In this document: positions 3,264-41,435 of the stretch, in pieces | Layout: every line of letters begins with the position of its first letter | How positions within the stretch are numbered: the first letter of the stretch is position 1 | DNA from: Litorilinea aerophila | GTDB taxonomy: Bacteria; Chloroflexota; Anaerolineae; Caldilineales; Caldilineaceae | Assembly (NCBI GenBank): GCA_945905745.1 | Contig: CAMDQF010000012.1 | Span: 1-41,963, forward strand | Direction of reading: 5' to 3' | DNA length: 41,963 nucleotides | Made by a program: the position numbers and the translations under genes | Notes under the pieces: generated by a model | What the model saw: only the letters and a program-made list of their open reading frames with translations | The model's database searches: none | Told to the model about the DNA's origin: nothing

Positions 3264-3333
3264 GGATATTAGATATTGGGTATTTCGTGGGGACGATCCA
3301 ATACCTAATCCCCAATCCCCAATCTCTAATATC
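3264..3333 (-). repeat. heptamer palindrome between APH and ACAD genes
   Basis: Left half 3265-3284 reads GATATT AGATATT GGGTATT in 7-nt steps. The right half 3300-3333 is its imperfect reverse complement with an extra CCCAATC-type unit (TAATCCC CAATCCC CAATCTC TAATATC). The acyl-CoA dehydrogenase stop codon (3326-3328) lies inside the right half. Confidence 0.75.
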
Positions 3334-4507
3334 TCTTTAGTATTCGTCTTGCTACGCTGATTTTGTGTACTTCGTCCGGGCCGTCGTAGATGCGGGCAGC
3401 TCGTTCGTGACGATACCACCAGGCGATGGGGGTATCGTCACTCATGCCCAGCCCGCCGAGGGTTTGCAGCGCGCGGTCCAGCACCCGGTTGATGACACCG
3501 GCCACATAAAATTTGATCAGGGAAATCTCGTCCCGGGCCGCGTAGGCGCCTTCCTCGTCAATTTTGCGCGCCGTATCCAGCACCAGGAGACGGGAGGCGT
3601 TGATTTCGGCCCGGCTCTCGGCAATCCAGGCCTGGACAATTCCCTGCTCGCCCAGTGTGCGCCCCGGCGCAACCTGGCGATGGGCCGCGTGGCTGCACAT
3701 CAGATCGAAAGCCCGCTCGCAGATGCCGATCCAGCGCATACAGTGGTGGATGCGGCCAGGACCCAGCCGCTGTTGGGCCAGGGCAAAGCCCGCGCCTTCG
3801 TCGCCGATGCGGTTGCTGACGGGAACCCGCACATTTTCGTAGGTCACTTCGGCGTGGGTGGGCCAGCCTTCGTTTCTCTCGCCCATCACCGCAATGTTGC
3901 GCACAAGGGTAAAACCGGGCGTGTCCAAGGGCACAATAATCTGGCTGGCCCGCTGGTGACGGCTCTCCGCATCTGGGCTGGTCACGGCCATCACAATCGC
4001 AAAGGTCGCGCCGTCCGCGGCGGTGGTGTACCATTTGTGGCCGTTGATGACGTATTCGTCGCCCTCGCGCACAGCCGTCGTGCTCATCCAGGTGGGGTTG
4101 CTGCCCGCGTGCTCCGGCTCGGTCATCGAGAAGCAGGAACGGATTTCGCCTCGCACCAGTGGCATCAACCAGCGATCCTTCTGGGCCTGGCTGCCAAATT
4201 GAAGGAGCAGTTCGCTGTTGCCGATGTCCGGGGCCTGGCAGTTGAAGGTGTAGTGGCCCAGGGGTGTGCGGCCCAATTCCTCACTCACCCGGCCAAACTC
4301 GGCCAGAGTCAGCCCTTGCCCGCCCACTTCGGCGGGCAATGCCAATCCCCACAGACCCCCGTCCCGCACCATCTGGCGCTTGGCCTGCAATGTCGGCTCC
4401 AGTTCGTGCCAGGGCTTGCCCAGAAAGGCGGCTTCCAGGGGAATCACTTCGCTGTTGATAAAATTACGAATACGGGGGAGAAGATCCGTGAGAATGTCTG
4501 TGGTCAT
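3326..4507 (-). CDS. acyl-CoA dehydrogenase (ACAD10/11-like)
   Basis: 393 aa flavoprotein of the acyl-CoA dehydrogenase superfamily. N-terminal helical domain (about 1-115), middle beta domain with CFSMTEPEHAGSNPT and INGHKWYTTAADGATFAIVM (flavin-binding region), and C-terminal helical bundle ending in QTLGGLGMSDDTPIAWWYR and YDGPDEVHKISVARRILKRY. The PDE of that last motif aligns with the catalytic-base region of the ACAD10/11 group (DGPDEVH) rather than the YEGTSE-like motif of short-chain enzymes. It may dehydrogenate an acyl-CoA or, as proposed for ACAD10/11, work with the adjacent APH kinase to eliminate phosphate from 4-phosphoacyl-CoA. No strong Shine-Dalgarno sequence. Downstream of the SDR gene, upstream of the APH gene. 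Confidence 0.92.
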   Translation of the reverse strand: MTTDILTDLLPRIRNFINSEVIPLEAAFLGKPWHELEPTLQAKRQMVRDGGLWGLALPAEVGGQGLTLAEFGRVSEELGRTPLGHYTFNCQAPDIGNSELLLQFGSQAQKDRWLMPLVRGEIRSCFSMTEPEHAGSNPTWMSTTAVREGDEYVINGHKWYTTAADGATFAIVMAVTSPDAESRHQRASQIIVPLDTPGFTLVRNIAVMGERNEGWPTHAEVTYENVRVPVSNRIGDEGAGFALAQQRLGPGRIHHCMRWIGICERAFDLMCSHAAHRQVAPGRTLGEQGIVQAWIAESRAEINASRLLVLDTARKIDEEGAYAARDEISLIKFYVAGVINRVLDRALQTLGGLGMSDDTPIAWWYRHERAARIYDGPDEVHKISVARRILKRY

Positions 4508-4539
4508 TGGTGAGGTATCCGTTCGTTGGTGATTTTCCT

Positions 4540-4635
4540 ATTGCGTATTGCGTATTCCGTTCTGTCCGTCAGATGGGGAAAATTGGTCAACCCAATCTCC
4601 AATCCCCAATCCCTGATCTCTAATCCCTTTTCTCA
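4540..4635 (-). repeat. heptamer arrays between ACAD and SDR genes
   Basis: Plus-strand reading: 4540-4560 is ATTGCGT ATTGCGT ATTCCGT. From 4591 there are CCCAATC TCCAATC CCCAATC CCTGATC TCTAATC and two weaker units. The SDR stop codon (4633-4635) lies at the end of the second array. Confidence 0.7.
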
Positions 4636-5415
4636 TCCCATACCTGCATCCACATATTGGCCGCCATCGATCAGAAAGGTCGCGCCAGTGGTGAAGCTGC
4701 TGGCGTCGGAGGCCAGGTAGAGGGCGATGCCGGTCAGTTCTTCCGGATTGGCCATGCGCTGCTGGGGTACAATGCGCATCACCGATTCGTAGAGTTGGGG
4801 ATTCTGCCAGATGGCGCTGCTGAAGGCGGTTTTAACGAAGCCGGGCGCGATGGCGTTGACCCGGATATTCAACGCGGCCAGTTCCGCGGCCAGCACTTCG
4901 GTCAGCATCAGCACTGCGGCTTTGCTTACACAGTAGACGCCCATGCCCGGCTGGGGACGTTTGCCCGCAATCGAGGCCAGATTGATAATCGCGCCGCCGC
5001 CCCGTTTTTCCATCGCCGCCGCGGCGGCCTTTGCCATGCGGAAGTAGCCAACCACATTTACGTCGAGAATTTTAGCCCAGTGGCTCTCTTCCGCAGTCAG
5101 AATCGGCCCAAAGTGGGGATTGGTGGCGGCGTTGTTGACGAGAATGTCCACGCCGCCGAATTCGTCGCTGGCGGCCTGGACGAGGGCTTGCACGGCTTCG
5201 CTGTCGCCGGTGTGTGTGGCCAGAGCCAACGCCTGCCCGCCCTCGGCCCGGATAGCCGTGGCCACGCCGTCCAGAGCGCCCTGTTTGCGGCTGCCCAGGA
5301 CAACCGCCGCGCCGGCCGCGGCGTAGGTGCGCGCAATCGACTCGCCGATGCCCCGGGACGCGCCGGTGATGATAGCGACTTTTCCGGTCAGGTCAAAGTT
5401 GGGGAGATGGCTCAC
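4633..5415 (-). CDS. short-chain dehydrogenase/reductase
   Basis: 260 aa classical SDR using NAD(P)H. The start is GTG at 5415 ([18 protein letters not shown]) because AGGAG lies 5-6 nt upstream; the ORF extends to 5484 but that part overlaps the promoter. Visible motifs: TGASRGIG (17-24, cofactor binding), NNAAT (94-98), active-site S148, Y161 and K165 in YCVSK, and the C-terminal [14 protein letters not shown]. SDRs of this type with an acyl-CoA dehydrogenase neighbour usually oxidise or reduce a hydroxy/oxo-acyl substrate. First gene of the SDR-ACAD-APH cluster, so probably part of one catabolic route; the substrate is unknown. Confidence 0.93.
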
Positions 5416-5474
5416 GGCGGCTCCTGTTGGAGACTGAATAGGTGGGCAGACTGGCAGGCAGACCAGTCGGGTCA

Positions 5475-5504
5475 AGTATAACACGCGGAGAAGGGGAGAG
5501 GCAA
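5475..5504 (-). promoter_or_regulatory. promoter of the SDR-ACAD-APH cluster
   Basis: Minus-strand TTGCCT (5504-5499), 18-nt spacer, TATACT (5480-5475). The start would fall near 5468, leaving about 50 nt of leader before the SDR GTG. No operator could be recognised. Confidence 0.5.
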
Positions 5505-6478: not shown

Positions 6479-6535
6479 TGGGAGCGCCGCTATCCTTAGC
6501 GGCATTACTCGCCGCCAGGGATGGCGGCGCTCCCA
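6479..6535. repeat. 57-bp REP/MITE-like palindrome between gatC and gatA
   Basis: Outer arms TGGGAGCGCCGC (6479-6490) and GCGGCGCTCCCA (6524-6535) are perfect inverted repeats. Two internal hairpins, GCCGCTA/TAGCGGC (6486-6503) and GCCGCC/GGCGGC (about 6510-6529), give a cruciform potential. It starts 3 nt after the gatC stop. Confidence 0.8.
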
Positions 6536-6550
6536 GGAATTGAGGCTGAC

Positions 6551-8032
6551 GTGAAAGAGACAACAGCGACTGAACTCCATCAATTGACCGTCCACGCGGC
6601 CGCAGCGGGGCTGGCTGCGGGTGACTTCTCTGCTGTGGACCTAATACGCGCTGTCCTGGCCCGCATCGAACAGGTGGACAGCCAGGTCTGCGCCTTTCTG
6701 ACAGTGGCCGGCGAGCAGGCGTTGGAACAGGCGGAAGCAGCCGATCGTTACCGCGCGCAAGGCGATAACCGCCCACTGTTGGGGATTCCCCTGGCCATCA
6801 AAGATGTGCTTTCCACCGAAGGAATCGTCACCACTGCCGGCAGCAAAATTCTGGAAGGCTACCGCCCGCCCTACACCGCCACGGCAGTAGAGCGATTGAA
6901 AGACGCCGGTGCGCTGATTATTGGTAAGACCAATACCGACGAATTCGCGATGGGGTCTAGCACAGAAAACAGCGGCTTCTTCACCACCCACAACCCGTGG
7001 AATCTAGACCGGGTTCCCGGCGGCAGCAGCGGTGGCTCGGCGGCCGCTGTGGCCGCGGACGAAACGTTGGCCGCTCTGGGCACCGACACCGGCGGCAGCG
7101 TGCGTCAGCCCGCCTCCCTCTGTGGCGTGGTGGGGATGAAGCCCTCCTATGGCCGGGTCAGCCGCTACGGGCTAATCGCCTACGGCAGCAGCCTGGACCA
7201 GATCGGACCGCTCACCAAAGATGTGGAAGATGCCGCGCTGATTCTGCAGGCGATGGCGGGCCACGATAGCCACGACAGCACCAGCCTGGATGCGCCAGTG
7301 CCCGACTACACGGCCAGTCTGACCGGCGACATCCGGGGCCTGCGGGTGGGCGTGCCTGCCGAATACTTTATCGATGGGATGGAGCCGGATGTGGAGGCCG
7401 CGGTGCGCGCCGCCATCGAGCATCTGGCCGGATTGGGCGCGGAGATCGTTCCCATCCGCCTGCCCAACACGGACAAAGCGCTCCCCGTCTACTATCTGAT
7501 CGCCACTGCCGAGGCCAGCGCCAACCTTTCCCGCTTCGACGGTATCCGTTTCGGTCCCGGCGGCAAGGCAGACCGGCTGCTGGACAACTACCGGCAGGTG
7601 CGGGGGCGGGGTTTTGGCCGGGAGGTGAAACAGCGGATTATGCTGGGGACCTACGCCCTGAGCGCGGGCTACTACGACGCTTATTACGGGAAGGCCCAGC
7701 AGGTGCGCACGCTGATCAAGCGGGATTTTGAGGCGGCCTTTGCCGATGTGGATGTGATCGTTTCGCCCACCTCGCCCACCACCGCCTTCCCCATCGGCGA
7801 GAAGGCCGACGACCCGTTGGCCATGTATCTGGCCGATATCTTCACTGTCAGCCTGAACCTGAGCGGGATGTGCGGCATCAGCGTCCCCTGTGGCTTTGAC
7901 CGCAACCACCTGCCCATCGGTCTGCAGATTCTGGGGCCGTCTCTGGGCGAAGAGACCATTTTACGCGCCGCCCACGCCTACGAGCAGACGACCGAGTGGC
8001 ACACGCGGAGGCCAGTGATCGGTGAACAGTGA
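6551..8032 (+). CDS. gatA: Asp/Glu-tRNA amidotransferase subunit A
   Basis: Glutaminase subunit of GatCAB (amidase-signature family); it releases ammonia from glutamine and passes it to GatB. I prefer GTG 6551 (493 aa, [18 protein letters not shown]) because GAGG lies 5 nt upstream and the alternative ATG 6521 falls inside the palindrome. The Ser-cisSer-Lys triad is present: Lys in LAIKDVLS, the cis-Ser in [13 protein letters not shown], the nucleophile Ser in [15 protein letters not shown]. The C-terminal part has [20 protein letters not shown] and [15 protein letters not shown]. The stop lies inside a heptamer-repeat array. Confidence 0.96.
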
Positions 8033-8106
8033 CCAGTAATCAGTAATCAGTGGAGATCGACGGGACCCACTGGTCACTGGTCACTGGTCACTGTTTACTG
8101 GTTACT
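8024..8106. repeat. heptamer palindrome at the end of gatA
   Basis: Left half (8024-8053): ACAGTGA CCAGTAA TCAGTAA TCAGTGG. Right half (8067-8106): CCACTGG TCACTGG TCACTGG TCACTGT TTACTGG. The right half is the near reverse complement of the left with one more unit. gatA's TGA (8030-8032) belongs to the first unit. A transcript would fold into a long hairpin. Confidence 0.85.
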
Positions 8107-8379
8107 CCGTCATCCCTATCCATACGAGCAACCCAACCAATGACCCCACTACCCAATCCCCCAATCCATCGGAGAGCAGCCAGTGCCGGCTGCCGGCGAC
8201 CGCTCAGTGGAGCCTGCTGAGGGTCGTGCAATCGGCGCACGAGGGCTTTGCGGCTACCGTCCAATCTCCCAATCTCTCAATCTCGGCTTTGTAGAGGAGA
8301 TTGAGAGATTGGGAGATTCAAAACTTTCTCTCGCATTTCTCCAACGAAAAGGGACGACCGTAACTGGTCGCATTGACGA
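8033..8379. other. 347-nt gap filled with repeats
   Basis: Between gatA and the aminotransferase there is no credible ORF. It holds the heptamer palindrome, a C-rich array with loose 7-nt spacing (about 8139-8164), an unassigned GC-rich stretch (8165-8258) and the 8-nt-period hairpin at 8263-8318. I see no good promoter for the next gene. Confidence 0.6.
8263..8318. repeat. perfect 22-bp hairpin with 8-nt period
   Basis: Arm 8263-8284 reads AATCTCCC AATCTCTC AATCTC. Arm 8297-8318 is its exact reverse complement, with a 12-nt loop between. It lies 62 nt upstream of the aminotransferase start. It has no T-run of terminator type. Confidence 0.85.
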
Positions 8380-10749: not shown

Positions 10750-10772
10750 CACCTTCCACCTGCCACCTGCAA

Positions 10773-12303: not shown

Positions 12304-12339
12304 CATTCACTATTCACCATTCACAATTCCAAAACTCCC
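12304..12339 (+). repeat. heptamer array abutting the rqcH start
   Basis: CATTCAC TATTCAC CATTCAC AATTCCA AAACTCC, then C and ATG. The array occupies the place where a Shine-Dalgarno sequence should be; no purine-rich site is present. Confidence 0.75.
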
Positions 12340-14082
12340 ATGCACTTTGACGCCCTCACCCTGGCAGCCATGGCCGCCGAACTGAACACAACCATCCGCG
12401 GTGGCCGCGTCCAGCAGATCCTCCTGCCTGATGCCCACAGCGTCGGCATGGAAATCTACGCCAACCACCAGCGCCACTACCTGCTGCTCTCTGCTCATCC
12501 CCAGGCCAGCCGGGTCCACCTGAGCAGCCAGAAGCTGCGCCGGGGTGTGGAAAAAGAGACACCCCTGCTCCTGCTCCTGAAAAAATATGTGCGGGGTGCG
12601 CTCCTCGAGGTCATCGAACTGCCCATCGCCTACGAACGGGTGTTGGCTCTGGGCTTCGACCACCCGGATCACGGCCCCACAACCCTGCTGGCCGAACCGA
12701 TGGGCCGTCTGAGCAATCTGCTGCTGTTGGATGCGGGCAAGCACATTCTGGGCGTTCTCAAACGGGTGATACCGGGGGAGAATGCCCAGCGGGTGTTGCT
12801 CCCCAAACGGCCCTACACACCGCCCCCGGCCCAGCACAAATTGCCCCCCCTGGACGACGGAGACCCGGACTATTACACCAACCTGACCGCGCTTTTGGCC
12901 GAAGGCGGGCGGCTATGGCGGGCACTGGTCGATGGTATGGAAGGGATCAGCCCGACCCTGGCGCGTGAGATCGCCTGGCGGGTGACGGGCGATGCCAGCG
13001 GTGACGCTGGGCCAGAACAGGTGGTGGCTCTGGCCGCGGCCCTGCAGGAACTCTGGGGGCTGCCCGCCAATGGAGGATGGACGCCGGGTCTGGCTATGGA
13101 CGACGAGGCAGGGGTCAGCGGCTTTGCCGTCTATGAACTCCACTTTGCCGACGACTTTCTGCCCACAGAGAGCGTGAGCGTCGCGGTGGCCGGCTTCTAT
13201 GGCGAGGCCGAGCGGGATCCGGCGGCTTCCACCGATGCCTATGCGGGGATGCGCAACGGAGTAGCTGTGCTGATCCAGCAGGCCGAGGAGCGGGTGGTAC
13301 GCCAGTTGGCAGCAATGGCCGCGGAAGAGCCGGAGGCCGGCGATCCGGCCCATCTGCGTACCCAGGCCGAGTGGCTGCTGGCCCTGCACACCCAAATTCA
13401 GCCGGGGCAGCGGGAGTTGGTTGTGCCCCTGGGCGACGAGGAAAGGCTGGTCATCCCTCTTTCTGGCAGAGAGACAGCTGTGGAACAGGCCGAGCGGATG
13501 TTCGACCGGGCAGCCAAGCTGGAACGGGCTGCGGTGATTATTCCCGAACGCCGCGCCCAAGTGGAGGCCGACCGGGACTATCTTGCCCAACTCCAGAGCG
13601 ATCTGGCCCTGGCCCAAAACCAGCCAGAAATCGCGTCTGTACGCGAAGCGCTGCGGGAGGCGGGCTATCTGCGCCAGCGTCCGGGCCGCACGCTGAAGGT
13701 GGCACCGGATCGTTCCAAACCGCTGCGCTTTCTCTCTACCGAGGGTTTCGCCATTCTGGTGGGACGCAACGCGCGCCAGAATGAAATTGTCACCTTTGAC
13801 GAGGCAGGGCCGGACGATCTCTGGCTGCATGTGCGCAATGTGCCGGGCAGCCATGTAGTCATCCGCAACGGCGGCCAGCCTGTAAGCGAAGAAACGACCC
13901 AGGCCGCAGCCCAGTTGGCCGCCTATTATTCCCGGCTACGGAATGAGCGGGGCGTGGCCGTAGCCGTTACCCGGCGGCGTTTTGTCAGCCGTGCCCCGGG
14001 TGGGCGGCCTGGGCTGGTCCACATGCGCAACGAGGAGACGCTGCTGGTAGAAGGGGTTTTGCCAGGGTTGGCAGAAGGCTAA
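12340..14082 (+). CDS. rqcH: RqcH/NFACT family ribosome quality-control protein
   Basis: 580 aa from ATG 12340 (MHFDALTLAAMAAELN, the standard NFACT N-terminus). RqcH binds stalled 50S subunits and recruits tRNA-Ala to add alanine tails. NFACT-N domain about 1-200: GGRVQQILLP, LLLSAHPQASRVHL, LLAEPMGRLSNLLLLD. A helix-hairpin-like region and a coiled coil (ERMFDRAAKLERAAVIIPERRAQVEADRD region, about 385-430) follow. The C-terminal NFACT-R domain has GRNARQNEIVTF, DDLWLHVRNVPGSHVVIR and the closing RPGLVHMRNEETLLV. Oddity: the DR motif (D97-R98 in B. subtilis) reads E99-R100 in IAYERVLALGF. No Shine-Dalgarno sequence; a heptamer array abuts the start. Confidence 0.93.
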   Translation: MHFDALTLAAMAAELNTTIRGGRVQQILLPDAHSVGMEIYANHQRHYLLLSAHPQASRVHLSSQKLRRGVEKETPLLLLLKKYVRGALLEVIELPIAYERVLALGFDHPDHGPTTLLAEPMGRLSNLLLLDAGKHILGVLKRVIPGENAQRVLLPKRPYTPPPAQHKLPPLDDGDPDYYTNLTALLAEGGRLWRALVDGMEGISPTLAREIAWRVTGDASGDAGPEQVVALAAALQELWGLPANGGWTPGLAMDDEAGVSGFAVYELHFADDFLPTESVSVAVAGFYGEAERDPAASTDAYAGMRNGVAVLIQQAEERVVRQLAAMAAEEPEAGDPAHLRTQAEWLLALHTQIQPGQRELVVPLGDEERLVIPLSGRETAVEQAERMFDRAAKLERAAVIIPERRAQVEADRDYLAQLQSDLALAQNQPEIASVREALREAGYLRQRPGRTLKVAPDRSKPLRFLSTEGFAILVGRNARQNEIVTFDEAGPDDLWLHVRNVPGSHVVIRNGGQPVSEETTQAAAQLAAYYSRLRNERGVAVAVTRRRFVSRAPGGRPGLVHMRNEETLLVEGVLPGLAEG

Positions 14083-17995: not shown

Positions 17996-19843
17996 ATGGA
18001 TTCTGCCATCCCTCTTGTCATCCACGCCACCCACGAGGCAGGCGTCAAAGTCGGCGGTATCGGCGCAGTGCTGGACGGACTGCTGGGCGCAGATGCCTAC
18101 AACCGTTCCGTCAGCCGTTCCGTGCTGGTCGGCCCACTCAACGGCAAGGACAGCGTGGAGATGGAACGGCTGAACAGTCCCCGCAACAAAATGACCATCC
18201 GCTACAGCAGCCTGCACGGGATTTTCGACGGCGTGAAGCCAGCCCTGCATGACGCACTGCAAGGGATCGAACAGAGCTTCCAGATTGCCCTTCTCTACGG
18301 AACCCGACGTTTTGGCGCATACGAACACGAGATCGTACTGGTGGATGCCACCAATCCAGCAAGCGGGCCAGTCAATGAATTTCGCTATCACGTCTGGCAG
18401 AATTATGGCATCGACAGCGGGCGCTACGCTTTGGCTGATGAGATGAACCTCTATTTTTCCATCGCCCAGCCCCTCTTTTCTGCCCTCAAAGCCATCGGCG
18501 TGGATGCGGGGCTGAGCCAGAACGAACGCTTTATCATCGCCCACGAATGGCTGGGGATGCCGGTGGTCTTTGCCGCCCAGATGAACGAGCCAAACCGCTG
18601 GCGCACGATCTTCTATGCCCACGAGATGGCAACCGCCCGTCTTCTGGTGGAGGCCCACGGTGGTCACGACACCCGCTTCTACAACGCGCTCTTCCGGGCC
18701 CAGGAGCGGGGCCAAAGCCTGGATGACGTTTTTGGCAACCACGACTTCTACTTCAAACACGCCATCATCCGCCAGGCTGTACGCTGCGACAATATCTTTG
18801 CCGTGGGTGATCTGGTGGTCCCAGAGCTGCGCTTTTTGGGCGGCGATTTTGCCCACAAAAACATCGATCTGGTCTACAACGGTGTCACCGTTCACCCGAT
18901 TACTTTGGCGGAAAAGCTGGCCTCCAAACGACTGCTCCAGGACTATTGCCAGAATCTCCTCGGCTATCGCCCCGACTACATCTTCAGCCACGTGACCCGG
19001 ATGGTGCTTTCCAAAGGGATGTGGCGGGATATTCGGGTGATGGAACATCTGGACCGGATGTTGGCGGAGGTCAAGAAGACGGCTGTACTCTTTGTCCTCA
19101 GCACCAGCCAGCCCGCGGGCCGCCGCTCCGAATGGGTTCACGCCTGGGAGCAGCAATACGGCTGGCCGGTGGGCCATCGCTCGGACAACGGCGACCTGAT
19201 CGACGCGGAGACGAGCTTCTTCTTCAATGGCGTAGAACCTTTCAATCGCCGGGCTGGGGATAGTCGGATTGTGCTGATCAACCAATTTGGTTGGGACCAG
19301 CGCAGTTGCGGCCAGCGAATGCCCGCGGAGATGAGTTTTATGGACTTACGTCGGGGCAGCGATGTGGAATTCGGCCAGAGTATCTACGAACCTTTTGGCA
19401 TCGCCCAGGTGGAACCCCTGAACTTCGGGGCCATCTCCTGTGTTTCCAATGTCTGCGGCTGTGTGGGTTTTGTCAACCGGGTGGCCCAGGCTTTGGCCGC
19501 GGAGGAAGGCTCCACCCTCGACCCCAACGACAACCCCAATCTGGTGGTGGCCGATTATGTCAGCCTGCCCAACGGCTACCCGCTCTTCTCGCCCCAGGAC
19601 GCGCTCTCCATCGACCAGCCCACCCGGGATTGGATCGAAGGGACGAACAGCGGCGACACCGCCTGGCGCATCTTCCGCCGTCTGCCCCAGGACGAAGCCG
19701 GGATGGAAAAAATGATCGAAAACGGCGAAGCCCTGGCCAAGGGAATGAGTTGGGATGTGGTGGTGCGGGACTATTTCATGCCAGGGCTGGAGCGGGCGCG
19801 TGTAACGCAAGCTGTTAGCTTGCGCACCCCAACCGCAAGCTAA
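17996..19843 (+). CDS. divergent glycogen/starch synthase-like glycosyltransferase
   Basis: 615 aa from ATG 17996 (AGGAGT upstream). GT-B fold: N-terminal VIHATHEAGVKVGGIGAVLDG has the Lys-x-Gly-Gly nucleotide-sugar loop, but as KVGGI (as in eukaryotic GT3 synthases) rather than the KTGGL of bacterial GlgA. FIIAHEWLGMPVVFAA and TIFYAHEMATARLL follow in the N-domain. The C-domain has DLVYNGVTV, SHVTRMVLSKGMWRDIR and the EX7E-like QSIYEPFGIAQVEPLNFGA. It is longer than GlgA (about 480) and carries insertions. The stop-proximal 13 codons derive from a palindromic repeat. Followed by glgB, so alpha-glucan synthesis is the likely role; the exact donor sugar is not determined. Confidence 0.78.
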   Translation: MDSAIPLVIHATHEAGVKVGGIGAVLDGLLGADAYNRSVSRSVLVGPLNGKDSVEMERLNSPRNKMTIRYSSLHGIFDGVKPALHDALQGIEQSFQIALLYGTRRFGAYEHEIVLVDATNPASGPVNEFRYHVWQNYGIDSGRYALADEMNLYFSIAQPLFSALKAIGVDAGLSQNERFIIAHEWLGMPVVFAAQMNEPNRWRTIFYAHEMATARLLVEAHGGHDTRFYNALFRAQERGQSLDDVFGNHDFYFKHAIIRQAVRCDNIFAVGDLVVPELRFLGGDFAHKNIDLVYNGVTVHPITLAEKLASKRLLQDYCQNLLGYRPDYIFSHVTRMVLSKGMWRDIRVMEHLDRMLAEVKKTAVLFVLSTSQPAGRRSEWVHAWEQQYGWPVGHRSDNGDLIDAETSFFFNGVEPFNRRAGDSRIVLINQFGWDQRSCGQRMPAEMSFMDLRRGSDVEFGQSIYEPFGIAQVEPLNFGAISCVSNVCGCVGFVNRVAQALAAEEGSTLDPNDNPNLVVADYVSLPNGYPLFSPQDALSIDQPTRDWIEGTNSGDTAWRIFRRLPQDEAGMEKMIENGEALAKGMSWDVVVRDYFMPGLERARVTQAVSLRTPTAS

Positions 19844-22105: not shown

Positions 22106-23317
22106 ATGACCCTGGAACTGTCCCAGCCCATACCCCTCCCCCATCTGTCGGCGCTTGTCAATGCTCGCTTTCCAATGGGCCTAGGAGCCAATAGCTTTGA
22201 GTTGGGCAGTTTGCTCCTGGCCGAAGGCTATATTGAGGGCGTTGAGGGTGGGCCGAGCAGCGCCCCTGGCTTTGATGCGACAAGCTGTGTAGTTCTGCCC
22301 GGCTTTATCGATCTCCACATCCACGGCAGCGCAGGCCACGACACAATGGACGCCAGGCCAGAGAGCCTGCCCGCCATCAGCCGCTTTCTGGCCCAGCATG
22401 GCGTCACCGGCTTTACCCCCACCACAATGACCGCGCCCCATCCGCCCACCCTGGCCGCGGTCCGAAACGTCGCCGCTACCCTGGCCGCCCCCATGCCCGG
22501 TGCGGCCATCCTCGGCGTCCATCTGGAAGGGCCGTACATCAGCCCCCGCTTCCCCGGCGCGCAGGCTAAAGAAAATATCCGCCGGGCCAATCTGGCCGAA
22601 TTTGGCGAACTGCTGACCGCCGGTCCGGTGAAACTCATCACACTGGCCCCGGAAGAGCCGGGCGCGGCCGCGCTGATCGACGCCGCGCTGGTAGCGGGGG
22701 TGCGGGTGATTATCGGCCACAGCGCGGCCAGCTACGATCAGGCCATCGCCAGTTTTGATCGGGGCGTCAGCCAGGCCACCCACACCTTCAATGCCATGAC
22801 CGGGCTGCACCACCGGGAGCCGGGTGTCGTGGGCGCTGTGCTGACCGATGAGCGCATCTTTGCCCAACTGATCGCCGACACCGTTCACGTCCACCCGGCA
22901 GCGATGGCGGTGCTGGCGCGCTGCAAAGGACCGGATCGCCTGCTGCTTATCACAGACGCCATCCGGGCCACGGGTCTTCCCGACGGAGAATCCGAGCTGG
23001 GCGGACAGACCGTCTTTGTGCGGGACGGCGCGTGTCGGCTGGCCGACGGCACCCTGGCTGGATCGATATTGACAATGGACGCGGCCCTGCGCTACTTCCT
23101 GGCCGCCACCGGCTGGCCGTTGGAAAAGGCGTGGCCCATCACCAGTTGCACGCCCGCCGCTGCGCTGGGAATTGCCGACACATTTGGAGTGATCGCCCCA
23201 GGCTATCGGGCCGATCTGGTGGTTTTGGACGCTTCATTGGAAGTGGTAGCGACGATTGTAGGGGGGCGGATCGTCTACCTGCGCGAGGGGGAGGAGAGGA
23301 GATTGGGTAATGGATAG
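22106..23317 (+). CDS. nagA: N-acetylglucosamine-6-phosphate deacetylase
   Basis: 403 aa amidohydrolase converting GlcNAc-6-P to GlcN-6-P and acetate, for amino-sugar use or cell-wall recycling. Motifs: PGFIDLHIHGSAGHDTMD (HIHG at 71-74), GVHLEGPYISP (Glu in HLEGPY, metal ligand), IIGHSAA (H205), ATHTFNAMTGLHHREPG (H226 and substrate loop), LLITDAIRATG (catalytic D284). Starts 3 nt after glgB, so translational coupling is likely; its own Shine-Dalgarno is weak. The C-terminal codons and stop lie in a palindromic heptamer repeat. Confidence 0.95.
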   Translation: MTLELSQPIPLPHLSALVNARFPMGLGANSFELGSLLLAEGYIEGVEGGPSSAPGFDATSCVVLPGFIDLHIHGSAGHDTMDARPESLPAISRFLAQHGVTGFTPTTMTAPHPPTLAAVRNVAATLAAPMPGAAILGVHLEGPYISPRFPGAQAKENIRRANLAEFGELLTAGPVKLITLAPEEPGAAALIDAALVAGVRVIIGHSAASYDQAIASFDRGVSQATHTFNAMTGLHHREPGVVGAVLTDERIFAQLIADTVHVHPAAMAVLARCKGPDRLLLITDAIRATGLPDGESELGGQTVFVRDGACRLADGTLAGSILTMDAALRYFLAATGWPLEKAWPITSCTPAAALGIADTFGVIAPGYRADLVVLDASLEVVATIVGGRIVYLREGEERRLGNG

Positions 23318-23358
23318 TGAGCGCGACTGCGCGCCACGCCCAATATCCATTACCCAAT
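23302..23358. repeat. palindrome covering both nagA and mvk stops
   Basis: ATTGGGTAATGGATA (23302-23316) and its exact reverse complement (23344-23358) flank a 27-nt loop. Units are 7-nt steps (ATTGGGT AATGGAT; CAATATC CATTACC CAATACC). nagA ends in the left arm (TAG 23315-23317), mvk in the right arm (TAA, 23352-23350). Confidence 0.85.
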
Positions 23359-29373: not shown

Positions 29374-29402
29374 ATTGTAGCACAATGTCATCCCGCTTTC
29401 AA
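29374..29402 (-). promoter_or_regulatory. promoter of the vapBC-nuclease-recJ operon
   Basis: Minus-strand TTGAAA (29402-29397), 17-nt spacer, TACAAT (29379-29374). It overlaps the end of the upstream glycosyltransferase gene. Confidence 0.65.
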
Positions 29403-30583
29403 CGAACAGAAGTGGCCATCTCCCGATAGACCGCCAGCGTCTCGGCAGCGGTGCGTTGCCAGGAGAAGGTCGCTGCCTGGGCCAGGCTCTTTTCGGCCAT
29501 CGACCGGCGCAGATTGTCGTCTTCCAACACCAGGCGTAGGGCGGCGGCGATGGCGCCCGTATCGGTCGGATCGACCAGCAGTGCCGCCTTCCCAGCCACT
29601 TCCGGCAGGCTGGAACGGTTGCCGCAGACCACCGGCGCGCCACAGGCCATCGCTTCCAGCACAGGCAGGCCAAAGCCCTCGTAGAGGCTGGGAAAGGCGA
29701 AGAGGGTGGCCGCGCTGTGGAGCGCGGGCAGGTCGGCGTCGTCCACCGGTCCGAGGAAGCGCACCGCGTCGCCCAATGGCGCGGCCAGGGCACGGGATTC
29801 CGGGTAGCGGTCGTCCCAGGCGCCGGCGATAATCAATTGTGAATTGTGAATTGTGAATTGTGAATTGTGAAGTTGGGCATAGGCATCGATGAGACGGGGC
29901 AGGTTTTTGTGGGGTTTATTGATGCCCAGATAGAAGATGTAGCGGTCGGGCAGATGATACTTTGCGCGCACACGCGCTATTTCGTCGGCGGGCTGGGGTC
30001 GGAAACGGGGGTCGGCGGCCAGGGGGATGGACGTTACCCGACTGGGGTCAACCGGGAAATGGGCCAGGAGATCGTCACGGGCCGACGCGGAAATTGTGAC
30101 AATTCGATCCGACGCTGCCAGGGCCAGACGGGTGGCGACGCGGAAAAAGAGCCGGGCACGCAGGGAGACGGTCTGCGGATGAAGGAGGGCGATCAGATCG
30201 TAGACCGTCAGCAGTGTGGGTGTGCCGGGGCAGTAGGGCATCAGGTAGTAGGTGCTGTGGAAGAGGGGGGAGGGGGGAGTGGGGATTAGGGATTGGGAAC
30301 TGGGAACTGGGGATTGGGCGAATTGGCGCAGCAGGCGGGGGATCGTCCATTGCTGGCGAAGGGAAAAGGACGAAACCGGAGCGGGGACGATTTGGACCTG
30401 CTGGCTGGCGAGGCTGGTGGGATTCCAGGCGGTCGGGTCGGAGGGATTCCAGAGAATGACCAACCGTTCATCGTCCGTCAGGAGCGGGGGCAGGGCCGCG
30501 GCCAGGTTGCGCACATAGCGCCCGATGCCAGGGAAGTGGGCGGTGGCTGTGCGGGCGTCTAGGATGTACTGACCTTCTTTCAT
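29399..30583 (-). CDS. GT4 glycosyltransferase containing two heptamer arrays
   Basis: 394 aa GT-B glycosyltransferase (GT4). N-domain: YILDARTATAHFPGIGRYVRN, HSTYYLMPY, LLTVYDLIALLHP. C-domain: YIFYLGINKPHKNLPRLIDA, LFAFPSLYEGFGLPVLEAMA (EX7E), AALRLVLEDDNLR. Two stretches are encoded by intergenic-type 7-nt repeats: QSPVPSSQSLIPTPPSP in the N-domain and HNSQFTIHNSQ in the loop before the strand LIIAGAWDD. Both are in frame and lie where loops are expected. Last gene of a methyltransferase-GT-GT-GT operon, ATGA overlap with the preceding gene. Probably acts in exopolysaccharide or O-antigen-like glycan synthesis. Confidence 0.9.
   Translation of the reverse strand: MKEGQYILDARTATAHFPGIGRYVRNLAAALPPLLTDDERLVILWNPSDPTAWNPTSLASQQVQIVPAPVSSFSLRQQWTIPRLLRQFAQSPVPSSQSLIPTPPSPLFHSTYYLMPYCPGTPTLLTVYDLIALLHPQTVSLRARLFFRVATRLALAASDRIVTISASARDDLLAHFPVDPSRVTSIPLAADPRFRPQPADEIARVRAKYHLPDRYIFYLGINKPHKNLPRLIDAYAQLHNSQFTIHNSQLIIAGAWDDRYPESRALAAPLGDAVRFLGPVDDADLPALHSAATLFAFPSLYEGFGLPVLEAMACGAPVVCGNRSSLPEVAGKAALLVDPTDTGAIAAALRLVLEDDNLRRSMAEKSLAQAATFSWQRTAAETLAVYREMATSVR
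29835..29869 (-). repeat. five exact heptamers inside a glycosyltransferase CDS
   Basis: AATTGTG repeated five times exactly (35 nt) on the plus strand; on the coding strand it gives HNSQFTIHNSQ. Since 35 is not divisible by 3, frame depends on the flanks; gain or loss of one unit would shift frame. Confidence 0.95.
30267..30315 (-). repeat. second heptamer array inside the same CDS
   Basis: Units GGGGAGT GGGGATT AGGGATT GGGAACT GGGAACT GGGGATT on the plus strand, the same (ATTGGGG) type as intergenic arrays at 3300, 4591 and 36219. Coding strand gives a Pro/Ser-rich loop. Confidence 0.9.
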
Positions 30584-36218: not shown

Positions 36219-36295
36219 AGTCCCCTGTACCCAGTCCCCTGTACCCAGTCCCCTGTACCCAGTCCCCAATCCCTACTCCCCAATCCCCAATCCCA
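36219..36295 (+). repeat. eleven-unit heptamer array abutting the rsmE start
   Basis: AGTCCCC TGTACCC alternate three times, then AGTCCCC AATCCCT ACTCCCC AATCCCC AATCCCA, eleven exact 7-nt steps. The last A is the first base of the rsmE ATG. A weaker palindromic part (AACGTGAAA-type units) lies at 36160-36215. Confidence 0.95.
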
Positions 36296-37032
36296 TGCAC
36301 CACTTCTTCCTCACCCACACCCCTATCACCCCCGGCCAGCCGATTGATCTGACATCCCTGGCCCATCAGTTGCGCTCTGTGCTACGCCTCTCCCCTGGCG
36401 AATCCATTCTGCTCCTGGACAATGCCGGTTTTGCCTATCCCACCGAAATTTCACGGCTGGACAAAAACGTTGCCCAAGGAAATGTACTAAGCCGGGAAGC
36501 TGCCGGAGGCGAACCGCCGGTTGCCCTGTCTCTCTATCTCTGCGCGCTCAAAGCGGACAAATTTGAGTGGGTGTTACAAAAAGGGGTGGAGATGGGCGTC
36601 AGCCGTTTTGTGCCGGTCATCAGCAGCCGGACAATTGTGCGCCCGGCGGAGAAGATCACCCGCAAGTATGAGCGCTGGCAGGCCATCATCCAGGAGGCCG
36701 CCGAGCAGTGCGGGCGGGGACGCTTGCCCGTGCTGGACGATCCGCTGGACTGGAACGCGGCCGTTGCCGAGCCGTCCGGTCTGCGGCTCCTGCCTTGGGA
36801 AGCCGCAGACGCCACTTCACTGACGCTGGGCGTGGCTTTGACCAGGACGGATTCTCCCGCGGCGTGCAGCCTGATCATCGGGCCAGAGGGGGGAATTGAC
36901 CCGGCAGAGGCGGCGCAAGCTATCAGCGCGGGCTGGCTGGCCGTCACCCTCGGCCCCCGCATCCTGCGCGCCGAGACCGCCGCGCTTACCGCGGCGGGGT
37001 TGATTCTGCATCGGTTGGGTGATTTGGGGTAG
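36295..37032 (+). CDS. rsmE: 16S rRNA m3U1498 methyltransferase
   Basis: 245 aa SPOUT methyltransferase of the RsmE family. N-terminal PUA-like domain MHHFFLTHTPITPGQPIDL, then LALK-type strand LYLCALKADKFEWVLQKGVEMGV, SSRTIVRP, IIQEAAEQCGRGRLP, and the knotted SAM site SLIIGPEGGIDPAEA and VTLGPRILRAETAALTA. Normal length. No Shine-Dalgarno is present because a pyrimidine-rich heptamer array runs up to the ATG; translation may rely on coupling with prmA or on another mechanism. Confidence 0.94.
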   Translation: MHHFFLTHTPITPGQPIDLTSLAHQLRSVLRLSPGESILLLDNAGFAYPTEISRLDKNVAQGNVLSREAAGGEPPVALSLYLCALKADKFEWVLQKGVEMGVSRFVPVISSRTIVRPAEKITRKYERWQAIIQEAAEQCGRGRLPVLDDPLDWNAAVAEPSGLRLLPWEAADATSLTLGVALTRTDSPAACSLIIGPEGGIDPAEAAQAISAGWLAVTLGPRILRAETAALTAAGLILHRLGDLG

Positions 37033-39191: not shown

Positions 39192-40508
39192 TTATGCTAT
39201 GATTTCGGCAAAATCTGTACTATTACCTATGCGCAAGGGTACTCCTACGCTAGTATACAACGCCAGCATTCTATCCGCAATGATGCGCCAGCCATAGCGG
39301 CGAGCCTCTTTGCGCGCAGCCTTGCCCATCTCCCAGCGCAGCAGTTCGTCGCTGAGAAGAAGATTCATCCGGTTTGCCAGTTCCCCCGGCGCGCGGGGCG
39401 GCACGAGGAAACCGGTTTTGCTCTCCTTCACCAAATGGGCCAGTCCGCCGACTCTGGCCGCAATCAGCGGCGCGCCACAGGCCATGGCCTCCAGCCCCAC
39501 CATTCCAAAACTCTCATAATGGGAGGGCATCAGCACCACATCCGCCGCAGAATAGAAGTCAGGCAAGACCGACTGCTGGCGAGCGCCCACAAAACGCACA
39601 GTCCTCTCCAGCCCCAGCTCAGAGCGCAGAGCCTGCAAGCGGGCCATCTCTGCATCCAACTGGACGGCCCAGGGGCTACCGCCTACAATTGCGACAGTCA
39701 GTTGATCGGCCAGGCTGGGACTCTGATCACAGAGCAGACGGGTGGCCTGTATGATTGTGTCGATGCCTTTCAGCGGTTCGATACGGCCCACAAATAACGC
39801 AATTTTTTGGTCCAGAGGCAAGCCAAGCTGGCGACGCATTTCGACCCGGGGCTGGGGACGAAAATGGCAGAGGTCCACACCGGGTGGGATGACAGCGATT
39901 TTGGTCGGATCCGCGTCGTATAGCTCGATCAACTGATCCTCTTCGGCGGGGGTGGCTGCGATCAGTCGGTTGGCGAAGTGGGCGATCCGCTCCTCGCCAG
40001 CGATGCGCTCCTGGCTTGCCCGCTGGCTTTCATCCTGGGCAATCTGATTTTTCATCTGCCCCAGGGTATGATACATATGCACCACCGGCACAGGACCCCA
40101 ACACTGGCGCAACTTCTCGGCTACCAGCCCGGAAAGCCAGTAGTGGCTGTGGAGCAGATCGTAGCGGATGGCCTGCTCATAGGCAAAATGGCAGACGCCG
40201 AGCGCGAATTCGTCCAAATAGGGGATAATCGCATCCGGGGACGACGCATGGGGGGGACCAGCCGGTACATAGATCACCCGCACATTGTCGCCCAAATCTG
40301 TGCGGATGGCCGGCTCCTCCTCCGCCCCGGTCCGGGTGAAAATGTCCACAGACAGGCCGCGACGCCCAAGCGCCCGGCTGAGTTCCCGCACATAGACATT
40401 CATACCACCGGTTTTGCTGCCGCCCAACTGGGCCAGAGGGCCAGTATGGACGCTGAGCATGGCTACTCGCTGTGGTGCAGAGGGTCCGAGTTGCGTAGAT
40501 TCAGTCAT
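39192..40508 (-). CDS. MshA-like GT4 glycosyltransferase
   Basis: 438 aa from ATG 40508 (GTG 40523 is an alternative; neither has a strong Shine-Dalgarno). N-terminal RVAMLSVHTGPLAQLGG followed by TGGMNVYVRELSRALG is the hallmark of MshA, which makes GlcNAc-inositol-P, and of related sucrose-phosphate-synthase-like GTs. Further: LLHSHYWLSGLVAEKL, IPPGVDLCHFRPQ, ALFVGRIEPLKGIDTIIQA, MPSHYESFGMVGLEAMACG (EX7E), KTGFLVPPRAPGELA. It could start mycothiol-, bacillithiol- or other glycoside synthesis. A PIG-L deacetylase lies divergently next to it. Confidence 0.85.
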   Translation of the reverse strand: MTESTQLGPSAPQRVAMLSVHTGPLAQLGGSKTGGMNVYVRELSRALGRRGLSVDIFTRTGAEEEPAIRTDLGDNVRVIYVPAGPPHASSPDAIIPYLDEFALGVCHFAYEQAIRYDLLHSHYWLSGLVAEKLRQCWGPVPVVHMYHTLGQMKNQIAQDESQRASQERIAGEERIAHFANRLIAATPAEEDQLIELYDADPTKIAVIPPGVDLCHFRPQPRVEMRRQLGLPLDQKIALFVGRIEPLKGIDTIIQATRLLCDQSPSLADQLTVAIVGGSPWAVQLDAEMARLQALRSELGLERTVRFVGARQQSVLPDFYSAADVVLMPSHYESFGMVGLEAMACGAPLIAARVGGLAHLVKESKTGFLVPPRAPGELANRMNLLLSDELLRWEMGKAARKEARRYGWRIIADRMLALYTSVGVPLRIGNSTDFAEIIA

Positions 40509-40568
40509 TAGAGGACAATTCACCTTTCTCAGAAAACTGTTAGCAGAACTGTCTCAAGAGAATCATAT

Positions 40569-40597
40569 TTGCGATCCTTTCTGCTGCATTCTACACT
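40569..40597 (+). promoter_or_regulatory. promoter of the PIG-L deacetylase gene
   Basis: TTGCGA (40569-40574), 17-nt spacer, TACACT (40592-40597). Start near 40604, 32 nt before the ATG. Confidence 0.55.
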
Positions 40598-40635
40598 ACA
40601 CTTTCTATAGCGCGCAACCCAGGAGAAACGATCTC

Positions 40636-41385
40636 ATGGCATCCGACAAGATTCACACAATCGTACTCGCCGCCCATCTGGATGACGGCGTTCTTTCCTG
40701 TGGGGGACTAATCTACCAACGCACCCAGGCAGGGGAGGGTGTGCTGGTGGCAACGGTGATGGCCGGGGATGCGAAGGGGGGGCCATCCGATTACGCCCAA
40801 AGCCTGCGCGACCGCTGGCAGTTGGATACCAGCGCCGAAGCCCAGCGCCGGGCAGAGGATGCAGCAGCCTGTCAGGTGTTGGGGGCGGGCTATCTGCACT
40901 GGCCCATCCCCGACTGCATCTATCGGGGCGGGGCTGACGGTACGATGTACTATCAGTCCGATAACGAGATTTTCGGCCCGGTTCATCCCGGCGAGGCGGG
41001 ACTGGTGGCGGATGTGGTGGCGCTGCTACGCAGTCTACCCGGCGCAGAACAGATTGTCGCCCCGTTGACCGTCGGCAATCACGTGGATCACATTTTTGTG
41101 CGCCAGGCCGCCGAGCAGGTATTCGGCCAGCGCTTGAGCTATTACGAGGATTATCCCTACGCTCAGAAAAAGGGCAGCGTGCAGGCTGTGCTGGAAACCA
41201 CGGGACAGGAGTGGCAGGCGACGGTCTATCCGCTTTCCGAAGCCGCGCTGCAAGCCAAAATCGAAGCGATTCTGGCCTACCGTTCCCAGTTCAGCACCTT
41301 TTGGACGGATCGGGCTGATTTGGAGCGGCAGGTGCGGGGGTATGCGGAGAGCGTGGGTGGAGAGCGGGTATGGAGGAAGGCGTGA
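40636..41385 (+). CDS. PIG-L family deacetylase
   Basis: 249 aa from ATG 40636 with AGGAG 10 nt upstream. Zn-dependent N-deacetylase fold of the PIG-L/MshB/BshB family (LmbE). The first motif reads AAHLDDGVLSCGG: His14, Asp16 and Asp17 are kept, but the usual AHPDDE is AHLDDG. GNHVDHIFVRQAAE supplies the third metal ligand. In thiol pathways such enzymes remove acetate from GlcNAc-inositol or GlcNAc-malate. Divergent from the MshA-like gene, same region as a YfiT-like gene. Confidence 0.88.
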   Translation: MASDKIHTIVLAAHLDDGVLSCGGLIYQRTQAGEGVLVATVMAGDAKGGPSDYAQSLRDRWQLDTSAEAQRRAEDAAACQVLGAGYLHWPIPDCIYRGGADGTMYYQSDNEIFGPVHPGEAGLVADVVALLRSLPGAEQIVAPLTVGNHVDHIFVRQAAEQVFGQRLSYYEDYPYAQKKGSVQAVLETTGQEWQATVYPLSEAALQAKIEAILAYRSQFSTFWTDRADLERQVRGYAESVGGERVWRKA

Positions 41386-41390
41386 TGAGT

Positions 41391-41435
41391 GAGACGTGAG
41401 ATTGGACAACGATCTCACATTTCACGTCTTATGTT
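41391..41435. repeat. heptamer-type inverted repeat after the PIG-L gene
   Basis: AGACGTGA (41392-41399) pairs with TCACGTCT (41422-41429); units follow 7-nt steps (GATCTCA CATTTCA CGTCTTA TGTTTCT). Confidence 0.6.

What the first reader, a model, noticed from the sequence alone, without database searches (positions are those of the whole stretch)
3264..41435. Dispersed 7-nt-period palindromic repeat family at gene boundaries
At least ten loci show short tandem units with a strict 7-nt step: 3264-3333, 4540-4635, 8024-8106, about 8139-8164, 12304-12339, 23302-23358, 29835-29869, 30267-30315, 36219-36295 and 41391-41435. The unit sequence differs per locus (CCCAATC, ACCAGTG, CATTCAC, AATTGTG, AGTCCCC/TGTACCC), and at least four loci form inverted copies. 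They are not CRISPRs and no mobile gene is near. The 7-nt step matches the STRR heptamers described in heterocystous cyanobacteria; a palindromic arrangement with changing unit sequence suggests a copying mechanism that preserves period and symmetry rather than sequence.
Basis: partly seen in the sequence, partly recalled or inferred. Interest (0 to 1): 0.75.

Follow-up and report, generated by a model that had tools for sequence, protein, structure and literature searches.

The report
Shape-keeping seven-base hairpins in Chloroflexota
Between the genes of this Chloroflexota bacterium, and sometimes inside them, lie many short hairpins and arrays built from repeated seven-letter units, and related species often keep the structure at the same place while changing its letters, a habit I found described before only at one intron site in cyanobacteria.

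Summary
The pattern is real and genome-wide. In 834,742 bases of this genome, period 7 gives 149 arrays, 116 mostly noncoding; apart from multiples of 7, period 8 is next (39). Of the 149, 70 have an inverted partner within 200 nt, against 4 around another array. The host is a Caldilineaceae-like Chloroflexota MAG, not a cyanobacterium. Congeners often keep a hairpin at the same junction with another unit: 9 of 12 junctions with periodic hairpins differ (classed by eye; the region was chosen as array-rich). At two sites one hairpin changed its unit on both arms by descent (5-6 pairs changed on both sides, 0-1 on one, 2-4 unpaired). At one codon position of a glycosyltransferase, 7 of 8 genomes read carry 7-nt arrays, each with another word. 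49 words form a single-substitution network. Hairpins hug stop codons (median 7 nt).

Best reading: 3'-end hairpins whose arms grow by 7-nt slippage and are rewritten arm-from-arm by template switching, with selection for the stem. The copying step is inferred; one test was weak. A Y1 transposase is not required.

The parts
3265..3334 (.). Palindrome, arms 3265-3284 / 3314-3333; 3300-3334 a mixed 7-nt array (AATACCT AATCCCC AATCCCC AATCTCT)
   Evidence: 20-nt arms 90% complementary; array; RNA fold z -4.2
4539..4560 (.). Direct 7-nt array TATTGCG x3
   Evidence: no inverted pair of 10 nt or more in 4501-4700
4591..4613 (.). Direct 7-nt array CCCAATC x3; the same junction holds an 8-nt AGATGCTG palindrome in G001 and G006
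8012..8106 (.). Long hairpin of CAGTNAN / NTNACTG heptamers; left arm supplies the last codons and the stop of the 6521-8032 gene
   Evidence: 40-nt arms 80% complementary; RNA fold -60.4 kcal/mol, z -9.5; protein end RRPVIGEQ*
8152..8167 (.). CCCAATCC x2, 8-nt step
8261..8318 (.). Perfect palindrome with 8-nt step CCAATCTC; G001, G003, G005, G006 have an unrelated palindrome (AGAAGTYGAACTTYT) here
   Evidence: 22-nt arms 100%; z -7.8
10750..10770 (.).
12305..12329 (.). Direct 7-nt array ATTCACN shortly before the start codon at 12340; ATTCGCT in G005
   Evidence: does not fold
23302..23358 (.). Palindrome at a convergent junction (genes end 23317 and 23350); period 7 only degenerate
   Evidence: 22-nt arms 91%; z -7.7; gene calls
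29835..29871 (.). AATTGTG x5, in frame inside glycosyltransferase gene 29399-30583 (minus), coding HNSQFTIHNSQ
   Evidence: other words at this codon position in relatives
30263..30318 (.). Mixed 7-nt array, in frame inside the same gene, coding SPVPSSQSLIPTPPSP
36219..36294 (.). Direct array, 14-nt double unit CAGTCCCCTGTACC passing into CCCAATC, ending at the start codon of the PF04452 gene 36295-37032
41389..41429 (.). Palindrome GTGAGACGTGAGAT / ATCTCACATTTCAC at a convergent junction; resembles the AACGTGA hairpins of the relatives
   Evidence: z -5.6

Best explanation
These are tandem-heptamer arrays and hairpins, mostly between genes, sometimes inside them. Shown: 7-nt and less often 8-nt tandem units, about half in inverted pairs; periodic hairpins between co-directional genes sit just after stop codons; species of one genus often keep a hairpin at the same junction with a different unit; at two sites the change is symmetric and, from similar loops and flanks, by descent; at one codon position seven genomes hold seven different words in 7-nt arrays; words are linked by single substitutions; one hairpin sits at a junction that is empty in four relatives. 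Inferred: polymerase slippage adds and removes 7-nt units and spreads a mutated unit through an array; when the region folds back during replication one arm serves as template for the other (quasipalindrome template switching), so a new word appears on both arms at once; cells keep the stem because it acts as an mRNA 3'-end structure (stability or weak termination), so form is inherited better than sequence. How whole hairpins are gained, replaced or dispersed stays open.
For: Period-7 excess: 149 arrays, noncoding density 20.8 bases/kb against 4.1 for period 8 and under 1 for the other non-multiple periods tested, 3-6 and 9-12. Inverted partner within 200 nt: 70 of 149; around another array 4; direct copy 1. 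Where G000 has a hairpin the relative has one in 36 of 46 comparisons, otherwise in 9 of 28 (Fisher p=1e-4, comparisons not independent). Of 12 junctions with a hairpin in at least two genomes and a 6-9 nt period in at least one, 9 differ in word between genomes (by eye). Symmetric change: L112:9154, G001 against G002, G003, G005: 5, 6, 5 pairs changed on both sides, 1, 0, 1 on one side, 3, 3, 2 unpaired in one or both, of 22; L112:7912, G001 against G005, G006: 6, 5 both, 0, 1 one-sided, 4, 4 unpaired, of 20. Glycosyltransferase site 2: arrays in 7 of 8 genomes read, all with different words; none scored in G004, G003 not read. 46 of 49 words have another word one substitution away (mean nearest distance 1.06; random intergenic heptamers 1.38, sd 0.09); largest single-step component 37 words, 122 of 149 arrays (random mean 9.2, max 24 words). 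23 of 33 periodic hairpins in co-directional gaps start within -15 to +20 nt of the stop codon. Template switching as maker and mender of hairpins: PMC8794818 (abstract and opening).
Against: 79 of 149 arrays have no inverted partner at that threshold. Order of variant units is mirrored only weakly: p=0.027 over 44 hairpins, 26 above and 17 below expectation; p=0.022 over 27 testable of 41 pairs in G000, 0.25 (3 of 10) and 0.29 (10 of 25) in the other two sets. At L112:11579 among G002, G003, G006 no pair changed on both sides and 2-4 of 22 are unpaired. Three of 12 junctions keep their word. One arm can expand alone (G006 at L112:9154). Selection for pairing by compensatory change would also leave double changes. 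Word connectivity is inflated because one degenerate array type yields several consensus words. Retention may reflect tolerance of long gaps rather than need. No transcript data.
Confidence: 0.45

Rival explanations
1. REP/REPIN-like mobile palindromes moved by Y1 (RAYT) transposases; different words are different mobile families that insert after stop codons.
For: Over 46 family genomes the CCAATCNCCAATC count and the PF01797 count correlate (Spearman 0.68; genus level 0.54, p=0.026); 12 of 14 genomes with 20 or more CCAATC hits and 8 of 32 with fewer have a Y1 hit. Many of the 21 Y1 loci inspected are, by eye, flanked by palindromes of their own. A hairpin at L112:18286-18378 is present in G000 and absent in G002 and G003 and, by contiguous match coordinates, in G005 and G006; G001 has a contig break there. 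Nested hairpin in G005 at L112:11579.
Against: Arrays without Y1 hits: G033 (one contig) has 37 CGNAATACGNAATACG hits and 19 arrays in 140 kb with 0 Y1 hits; G009 has 161 CCAATC hits with 0, but is only 85% complete. The Y1 relative beside a TATTGCG hairpin has, by eye, the same upstream coding sequence in 13 of 16 loci, and its junction shows changing words or none, like other junctions. Words grade into each other; in-place symmetric change. Other transposases were not searched.
Confidence: 0.2
2. Neutral simple-sequence repeats: slippage makes the arrays and template switching the palindromes, with no selected function.
For: Arrays are rare between divergent genes (5 of 111, against 51 of 378 gaps) and sit also in variable protein loops, as tolerance would predict; genera of one family differ widely.
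Against: Periodic hairpins crowd the stop codon (median 7 nt) rather than the next start (median 38 nt); site retention.
Confidence: 0.2
3. Intrinsic transcription terminators whose stems drift.
For: Stop-codon-proximal; T count in the next 8 nt 2.48 against 1.84, and 4 of 33 have 5 or more T against 1.2% of background. Gaps with any hairpin: 29 of 47 convergent, 65 of 348 co-directional, 8 of 41 divergent; periodic hairpins number 9, 33 and 2 in these.
Against: 29 of 33 lack the T run; most arrays lie between co-directional genes (97 of 111).
Confidence: 0.1
4. G-quadruplex elements as proposed for Xanthomonas and Nostoc GGGNATC / GGGGAYT repeats.
For: The commonest word here (AATCCCC, 20 of 149) is the Nostoc word GGGGATT (PMC4692102).
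Against: Only 44 of 149 arrays have a word with three or more G or C in a row; in co-directional gaps the G-rich strand is on the mRNA in 13 and the C-rich in 12 CCCARTC arrays.
Confidence: 0.03
5. Paired binding sites of regulators, as proposed for tandem 7- and 8-mers on opposite strands in Geobacter metallireducens (PMC2700814).
For: Same paired layout (passages).
Against: The word changes between species at one site, which a sequence-reading protein would hardly tolerate.
Confidence: 0.02

Closest known systems
trnL (UAA) intron P6b stem of Nostoc and Calothrix (PMC4476775; passages read)
   Same: Hairpin arms built of 7-nt repeats; two word classes (TDNGATT, NNTGAGT), one replacing the other at one site while the structure stays; units gained or lost on one or both sides
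   Different: One locus inside a ribozyme, two word classes, cyanobacteria; here many loci, dozens of words, Chloroflexota, mostly gene junctions
Heptameric repeats of Xanthomonas and Nostoc, GGGNATC / GGGGAYT (PMC4692102; passages and Discussion); STRR of cyanobacteria (recalled)
   Same: Period 7, mostly noncoding, rare between divergent genes; two Nostoc words identical to words here; 70 and 75 inverted pairs in two Xanthomonas genomes; repeats mostly between the same genes in both, with length and sequence variation
   Different: That study follows one word family per genome; here the word itself changes between congeners at the same site
Paired tandem 7/8-mers of Geobacter metallireducens (PMC2700814; passages)
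   Same: Tandem 7- or 8-nt units facing each other on opposite strands at variable distance
   Different: Described as regulator-binding sites of a few consensus classes
TAACTGA repeats of Beggiatoaceae, cyanobacteria and Bacteroidetes (PMC4679880; passages)
   Same: Intergenic heptamer repeats; the same word (canonical AACTGAT) occurs here
   Different: Direct repeats just upstream of start codons, one inverted case
REP / RAYT elements (PMC3733652; abstract and passages)
   Same: Extragenic palindromes, mostly downstream of genes, can provide stop codons, some inside ORFs; GTAG repeats are reported in Chloroflexi
   Different: Tandem 7-nt arms; no dependence on Y1 genes; tags not scanned here
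Inverted repeats of Caenorhabditis conserved in structure more than in sequence (PMC1803023; abstract and Discussion)
   Same: Form outlasts sequence; an active copying mechanism is considered beside selection
   Different: Animal, long arms with paralogous genes, no 7-nt period
Variable but structured nif intergenic regions of Anabaena (Jackman and Mulligan 1995) and small dispersed repeats of Nostoc (Elhai 2008), both recalled, not read
   Same: Structured intergenic regions, nested small elements, heptamers nearby
   Different: Not compared here

Membership tests
STRR-type heptameric repeats | Tandem 7-nt units, dispersed, mainly noncoding | tested here: met
STRR-type heptameric repeats | Cyanobacterial host | tested here: not met
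   Chloroflexota relatives; same kind by form, not claimed as the cyanobacterial family
STRR-type heptameric repeats | Shared unit sequences | tested here: met
   AATCCCC and ACTGGGG equal the Nostoc words GGGGATT and GGGGACT
trnL P6b-like heptamer stem | Hairpin arms of 7-nt words, word replaced at a fixed site | tested here: met
trnL P6b-like heptamer stem | Located in the intron of a tRNA-Leu gene | tested here: not met
   no tRNA gene found in the window; arrays lie at gene junctions or in a glycosyltransferase
REP / REPIN | Dispersed extragenic palindrome | tested here: met
REP / REPIN | Cognate RAYT gene | tested here: not met
   array-bearing G033 has no Y1 hit; G009 neither, though incomplete
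REP / REPIN | GTAG or CGTC tag beside the stem | not tested
   not scanned; GTAG occurs by eye next to the TATTGCG arms
Intrinsic terminator | Stem followed by a T run | tested here: not met
   4 of 33
G-quadruplex repeat | G tracts in each unit | tested here: not met
   44 of 149 arrays
CRISPR array | Repeats of 24-48 bp separated by unique spacers (sizes from PMC3733652) | tested here: not met
   head-to-tail 7-nt units

The most novel reading that the evidence does not exclude
A replication-linked copying process rewrites tandem-heptamer arrays, and both arms of their palindromes together, all over these genomes, so that period and mirror symmetry are inherited while sequence is free: a repeat class defined by form, whose words wander along single-substitution paths and occupy the same junctions, and even the same protein loop, with a different word in each species.
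Probability: 0.3. Interest if true: 0.8.

Novelty: new variant of a known kind. Interest (0 to 1): 0.55.

Why it matters
Heptameric repeats have long been noted without an agreed cause or role; the 2015 study read here ends by saying so (PMC4692102). This genus offers orthologous junctions where the hairpin is kept and the word is not, and a gene-internal site with a new word in each genome read, so slippage, arm-to-arm template switching, transposition and selection on RNA structure can be told apart by comparison and by simple laboratory assays. It also shows the phenomenon outside cyanobacteria and Xanthomonas, with some identical words, which asks why the same 7-mers recur in distant phyla.

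Tried and rejected
Mirrored order of variant units as direct proof of arm copying: first test p=0.027 (44 of 53 listed hairpins tested; overlapping duplicates, arms over 60 nt and arms too short or invariant were dropped), second p=0.022 in G000 but 0.25 and 0.29 in two smaller sets. Weak; kept as such.

RAYT as the mover: the family-wide correlation looked good, but arrays occur in genomes without Y1 hits. The Y1 relative next to a TATTGCG hairpin (P0011) is kept at one gene junction in several genera. In one search the ORFs that my script picked for L229 and L223 are not clean Y1 reading frames; only the flanks were used.

A conserved interior of the TATTGCG elements: the 8 interiors (spacers 90-126 nt) show no shared sequence beyond short stretches at their ends.

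In one search the G006 arm at L112:9154 was anchored off register and is not used; the W:8033 comparisons of G000 with G003 and G005 are out of register and are not used; G001 at W:4508 was not found by the anchor. At L112:16802 (same word family) G000 against G001 gives 10 both-sided, 4 one-sided and 4 unpaired of 30, register uncertain, not used.

An earlier hand count of hairpin sites (10 of 12) used a looser rule; by the rule it is 9 of 12 (same: L112:16802, L112:17373, W:4508). Seven further junctions have only non-periodic hairpins in two or more genomes; by eye three keep the same one, three differ, one is mixed. L112 was chosen because it is rich in arrays, so these figures are not genome averages.

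My gene finder is home-made. Word searches in genomes use one or two words only, so a genome without CCAATC is not a genome without arrays (G033 shows this).
Full report
What is there. The window is contig C12 (41,963 bases) of G000, a 6.43-Mb assembly of 436 contigs, completeness 98.84, contamination 6.98. The best named matches of its 6521-8032 protein (I recognise GatA; no call names it) are mostly Chloroflexota MAGs, among them Caldilineaceae, at 72% identity and less; the length of the G024 contig C20 (298,994) equals that of the Caldilineaceae record of L011, so I call the family Caldilineaceae-like. Six congeners are held (G001-G006).

Observation. In the window, 10 period-7 segments against a mean of 0.0 in ten dinucleotide shuffles. 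Five places are inverted pairs. RNA folding gives z below -4 for five of ten stretches (3262, 8012, 8258, 23300, 41387), slight signals at 4538 (-1.8) and 36219 (-2.2), none at the other three.

Genome scale. Forty stretches of G000 (792,779 bases) give 17.5 period-7 segments per 100 kb against 0.1 shuffled; period 8 gives 4.7, 12 gives 4.5, 6 gives 3.9. With the window (834,742 bases; 20.5% noncoding by my own gene finder), 149 period-7 arrays: 116 mostly noncoding, 33 mostly coding; noncoding density 20.8 bases per kb, period 8 4.1, other tested non-multiples under 1. Period 7 is also dominant in the single-contig genome G033 (19 in 140 kb, shuffled 0) and in G139 of another family (12 in 60 kb, shuffled 0), but nearly absent in G027 (1 in 100 kb). 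The word CCAATCNCCAATC occurs 292 times in G000, its reversed control never; 29-468 times in the seven genomes of the genus and patchily over the family (39 of 46 genomes with any match). In an even sample of the phylum, 130 of 301 genomes have any match, the highest after G000 being 72; other family members were not in that sample.

Symmetry. 70 of 149 arrays have an inverted partner within 200 nt at score 12; around another array the count is 4, and a direct copy beyond the array 1. The other 79 have none. One sub-family (TATTGCG) has outer heptamer arms, an inner stem and interiors without shared sequence; 8 inverted pairs among 26 arrays, all between co-directional predicted genes.

Position. 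Of 111 noncoding arrays with two neighbours, 97 lie between co-directional genes, 9 convergent, 5 divergent; of gaps of 60 nt or more the figures are 283, 44 and 51. Of 110 hairpins found in gaps (loop up to 60 nt, so the TATTGCG elements are left out), 44 have a 6-9 nt period. In the 33 of these in co-directional gaps the hairpin starts a median of 7 nt after the stop codon (23 of 33 within -15 to +20) and ends a median of 38 nt before the next start; 4 of 33 are followed by a T-rich stretch. The 8012-8106 hairpin supplies the stop codon of the upstream gene.

Same place, other letters. Orthologous junctions were read in the window and in L112 (G000:C2:1-20000), which I chose because it is array-rich. 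Examples: L112:7912-8091 holds TATTGCG arms in G000, CTGCGTA arms in G001, AACGTGA arms in G005 and G006; L112:2550-2707 holds TATTGCG in G000 and G002 and the 8-mer GTTGATTG in G001 and G005 (a short form in G006); window 8033 holds CAGTNAN in G000, G003, G005 and GACGNNN in G001. Of 12 junctions with a hairpin in at least two genomes and a 6-9 nt period in at least one, 9 differ in word, by eye; L112:16802, L112:17373 and window 4508 (G001 and G006 alike; G000 has two direct arrays) do not. Over 30 junctions, if G000 has a hairpin the relative has one in 36 of 46 comparisons, otherwise in 9 of 28 (comparisons are not independent, and very short gaps can hold no hairpin).

Two kinds of change. 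(a) In place: at L112:9154, G001 and G002, G003, G005 have similar loops, inner stem and flank, yet 5, 6, 5 of 22 pairs differ on both sides, 1, 0, 1 on one side, and 3, 3, 2 are unpaired in one or both; at L112:7912 G001 against G005 and G006 gives 6, 5 both-sided, 0, 1 one-sided, 4, 4 unpaired of 20. Against this, at L112:11579 the AACGTGA stems of G002, G003, G006 differ only by unpaired positions (2-4 of 22), none mirrored, and G006 at L112:9154 has a much longer right arm. (b) Gain or exchange of the whole hairpin: L112:18286-18378 is present in G000; the genes overlap in G002 and G003, match coordinates are contiguous in G005 and G006, and G001 has a contig break. In G005 an AACGTGA hairpin sits inside a decayed TATTGCG element whose interior resembles that of G000 (L112:11579).

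Inside a gene. The two arrays in the glycosyltransferase 29399-30583 (Pfam PF00534) fall at two variable loops. At DNA level, site 2 has a period-7 array in 7 of 8 genomes read, each with another word: TTCACAA (G000), CCCAATA (G005), CAATACG (G002), CCCCATT (G001), TCGCAAT (G006), AGTCCCC (G025), CCATTCG (G017); none scored in G004; G003 was not read there. Site 1 has arrays in 8 of 8 genomes read: CCCARTC-like in G000, G005, G006, G025, G017, G003, TTCGCAA in G002, a weak GTCCGTC in G001; G004 was not read there. Both are in frame.

Words. 49 consensus words for 149 arrays; 46 have another word at one substitution (mean 1.06; random intergenic heptamers 1.38, sd 0.09), and 37 words with 122 arrays form one single-step component (random mean 9.2, max 24). 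Degenerate arrays inflate this. Successive units differ by 0-3 letters (157, 205, 82, 8 cases). Mixed arrays pass from one word to another in register, for example GCGGGTT to GCGAATT (L118:5723) and GAGGGGC to GAATTGC (L189:10496).

Mechanism. Slippage at 7 nt is the published suggestion for the abundance of heptamers (as quoted in PMC4679880 and PMC4692102). Template switching that creates and mends hairpins is published (PMC8794818, abstract and opening). Together with selection for a 3' stem they explain period, symmetry, in-place symmetric change and the word network. They do not by themselves explain dispersal of the same word to hundreds of places or whole replacements; a copying or transposing step is missing. 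Y1 transposases were the natural candidate, but they are not required, although RAYT/REP-like systems with other palindromes are common here (by eye). Other transposases were not searched.

Known or new. Heptamer stems with word replacement are described for the Nostoc trnL intron (PMC4476775), inverted heptamer pairs for Xanthomonas (PMC4692102), and paired 7/8-mers for Geobacter (PMC2700814). My two searches for such repeats in Chloroflexi, Anaerolineae or Caldilinea showed 20 of 131 and 10 of 82 papers; from titles and abstracts none describes them, apart from GTAG REPs in Chloroflexi (PMC3733652). The library lacks most subscription papers. I therefore call it a new variant of a known kind.

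Noticed in passing
L211-L230 and L118 (21 Y1 loci): Many PF01797 (RAYT-like) genes of these genomes are, by eye, flanked by palindromes of their own, e.g. GTAGGTGCGGTTTGCAACCGCAC, ACCTTCCGGGAAGCGGCC, GTAGGTTGGGTTCTCGCC, AACCGAGTTTCTCGGAAGAAACTCGGTTT.
   Followed up: partly
L118:8725-9255 (minus) and homologs L231-L246: A Y1-like protein with the same upstream coding sequence in 13 of 16 loci by eye; in the genus the HUH motif reads HSH (HSY, QSS in two) and DYIHYNP reads DT(V/I)HYDP or similar (motif names recalled); possibly a domesticated transposase.
   Followed up: partly
L113:14554-14682, L161:126-247, L169, L111, L159, L153: Dispersed element of about 125 bp with stem ...GGTGCGTGGTGCGTGAACTGGTACACGAACTACGCACCACG...; the heptamer count inside its stem varies between copies.
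   Followed up: no
L153:18620-18790, L163, L123, L165, L120: Dispersed palindrome with quasi-repeats such as ACGCAGATTTCGCAGA / ATCCGTGTGAATCCGT, usually between AAATAG and CTATTT.
   Followed up: no
   Followed up: no
L112:6522-6978: My gene finder seems to have missed a small conserved ORF here; the junction holds two separate hairpin sites, the second absent in G005 and G006.
   Followed up: partly
L150:19225-19258 and 19364-19397 (G033): Two direct 34-nt CAGTGGT arrays 139 nt apart that differ only in which unit carries CGGTGGT.
   Followed up: no
G033 and other genomes of genus g8: The reversed control pattern of CCAATCNCCAATC is itself abundant there (52 in G033), so another heptamer word is common in that genus.
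   Followed up: partly
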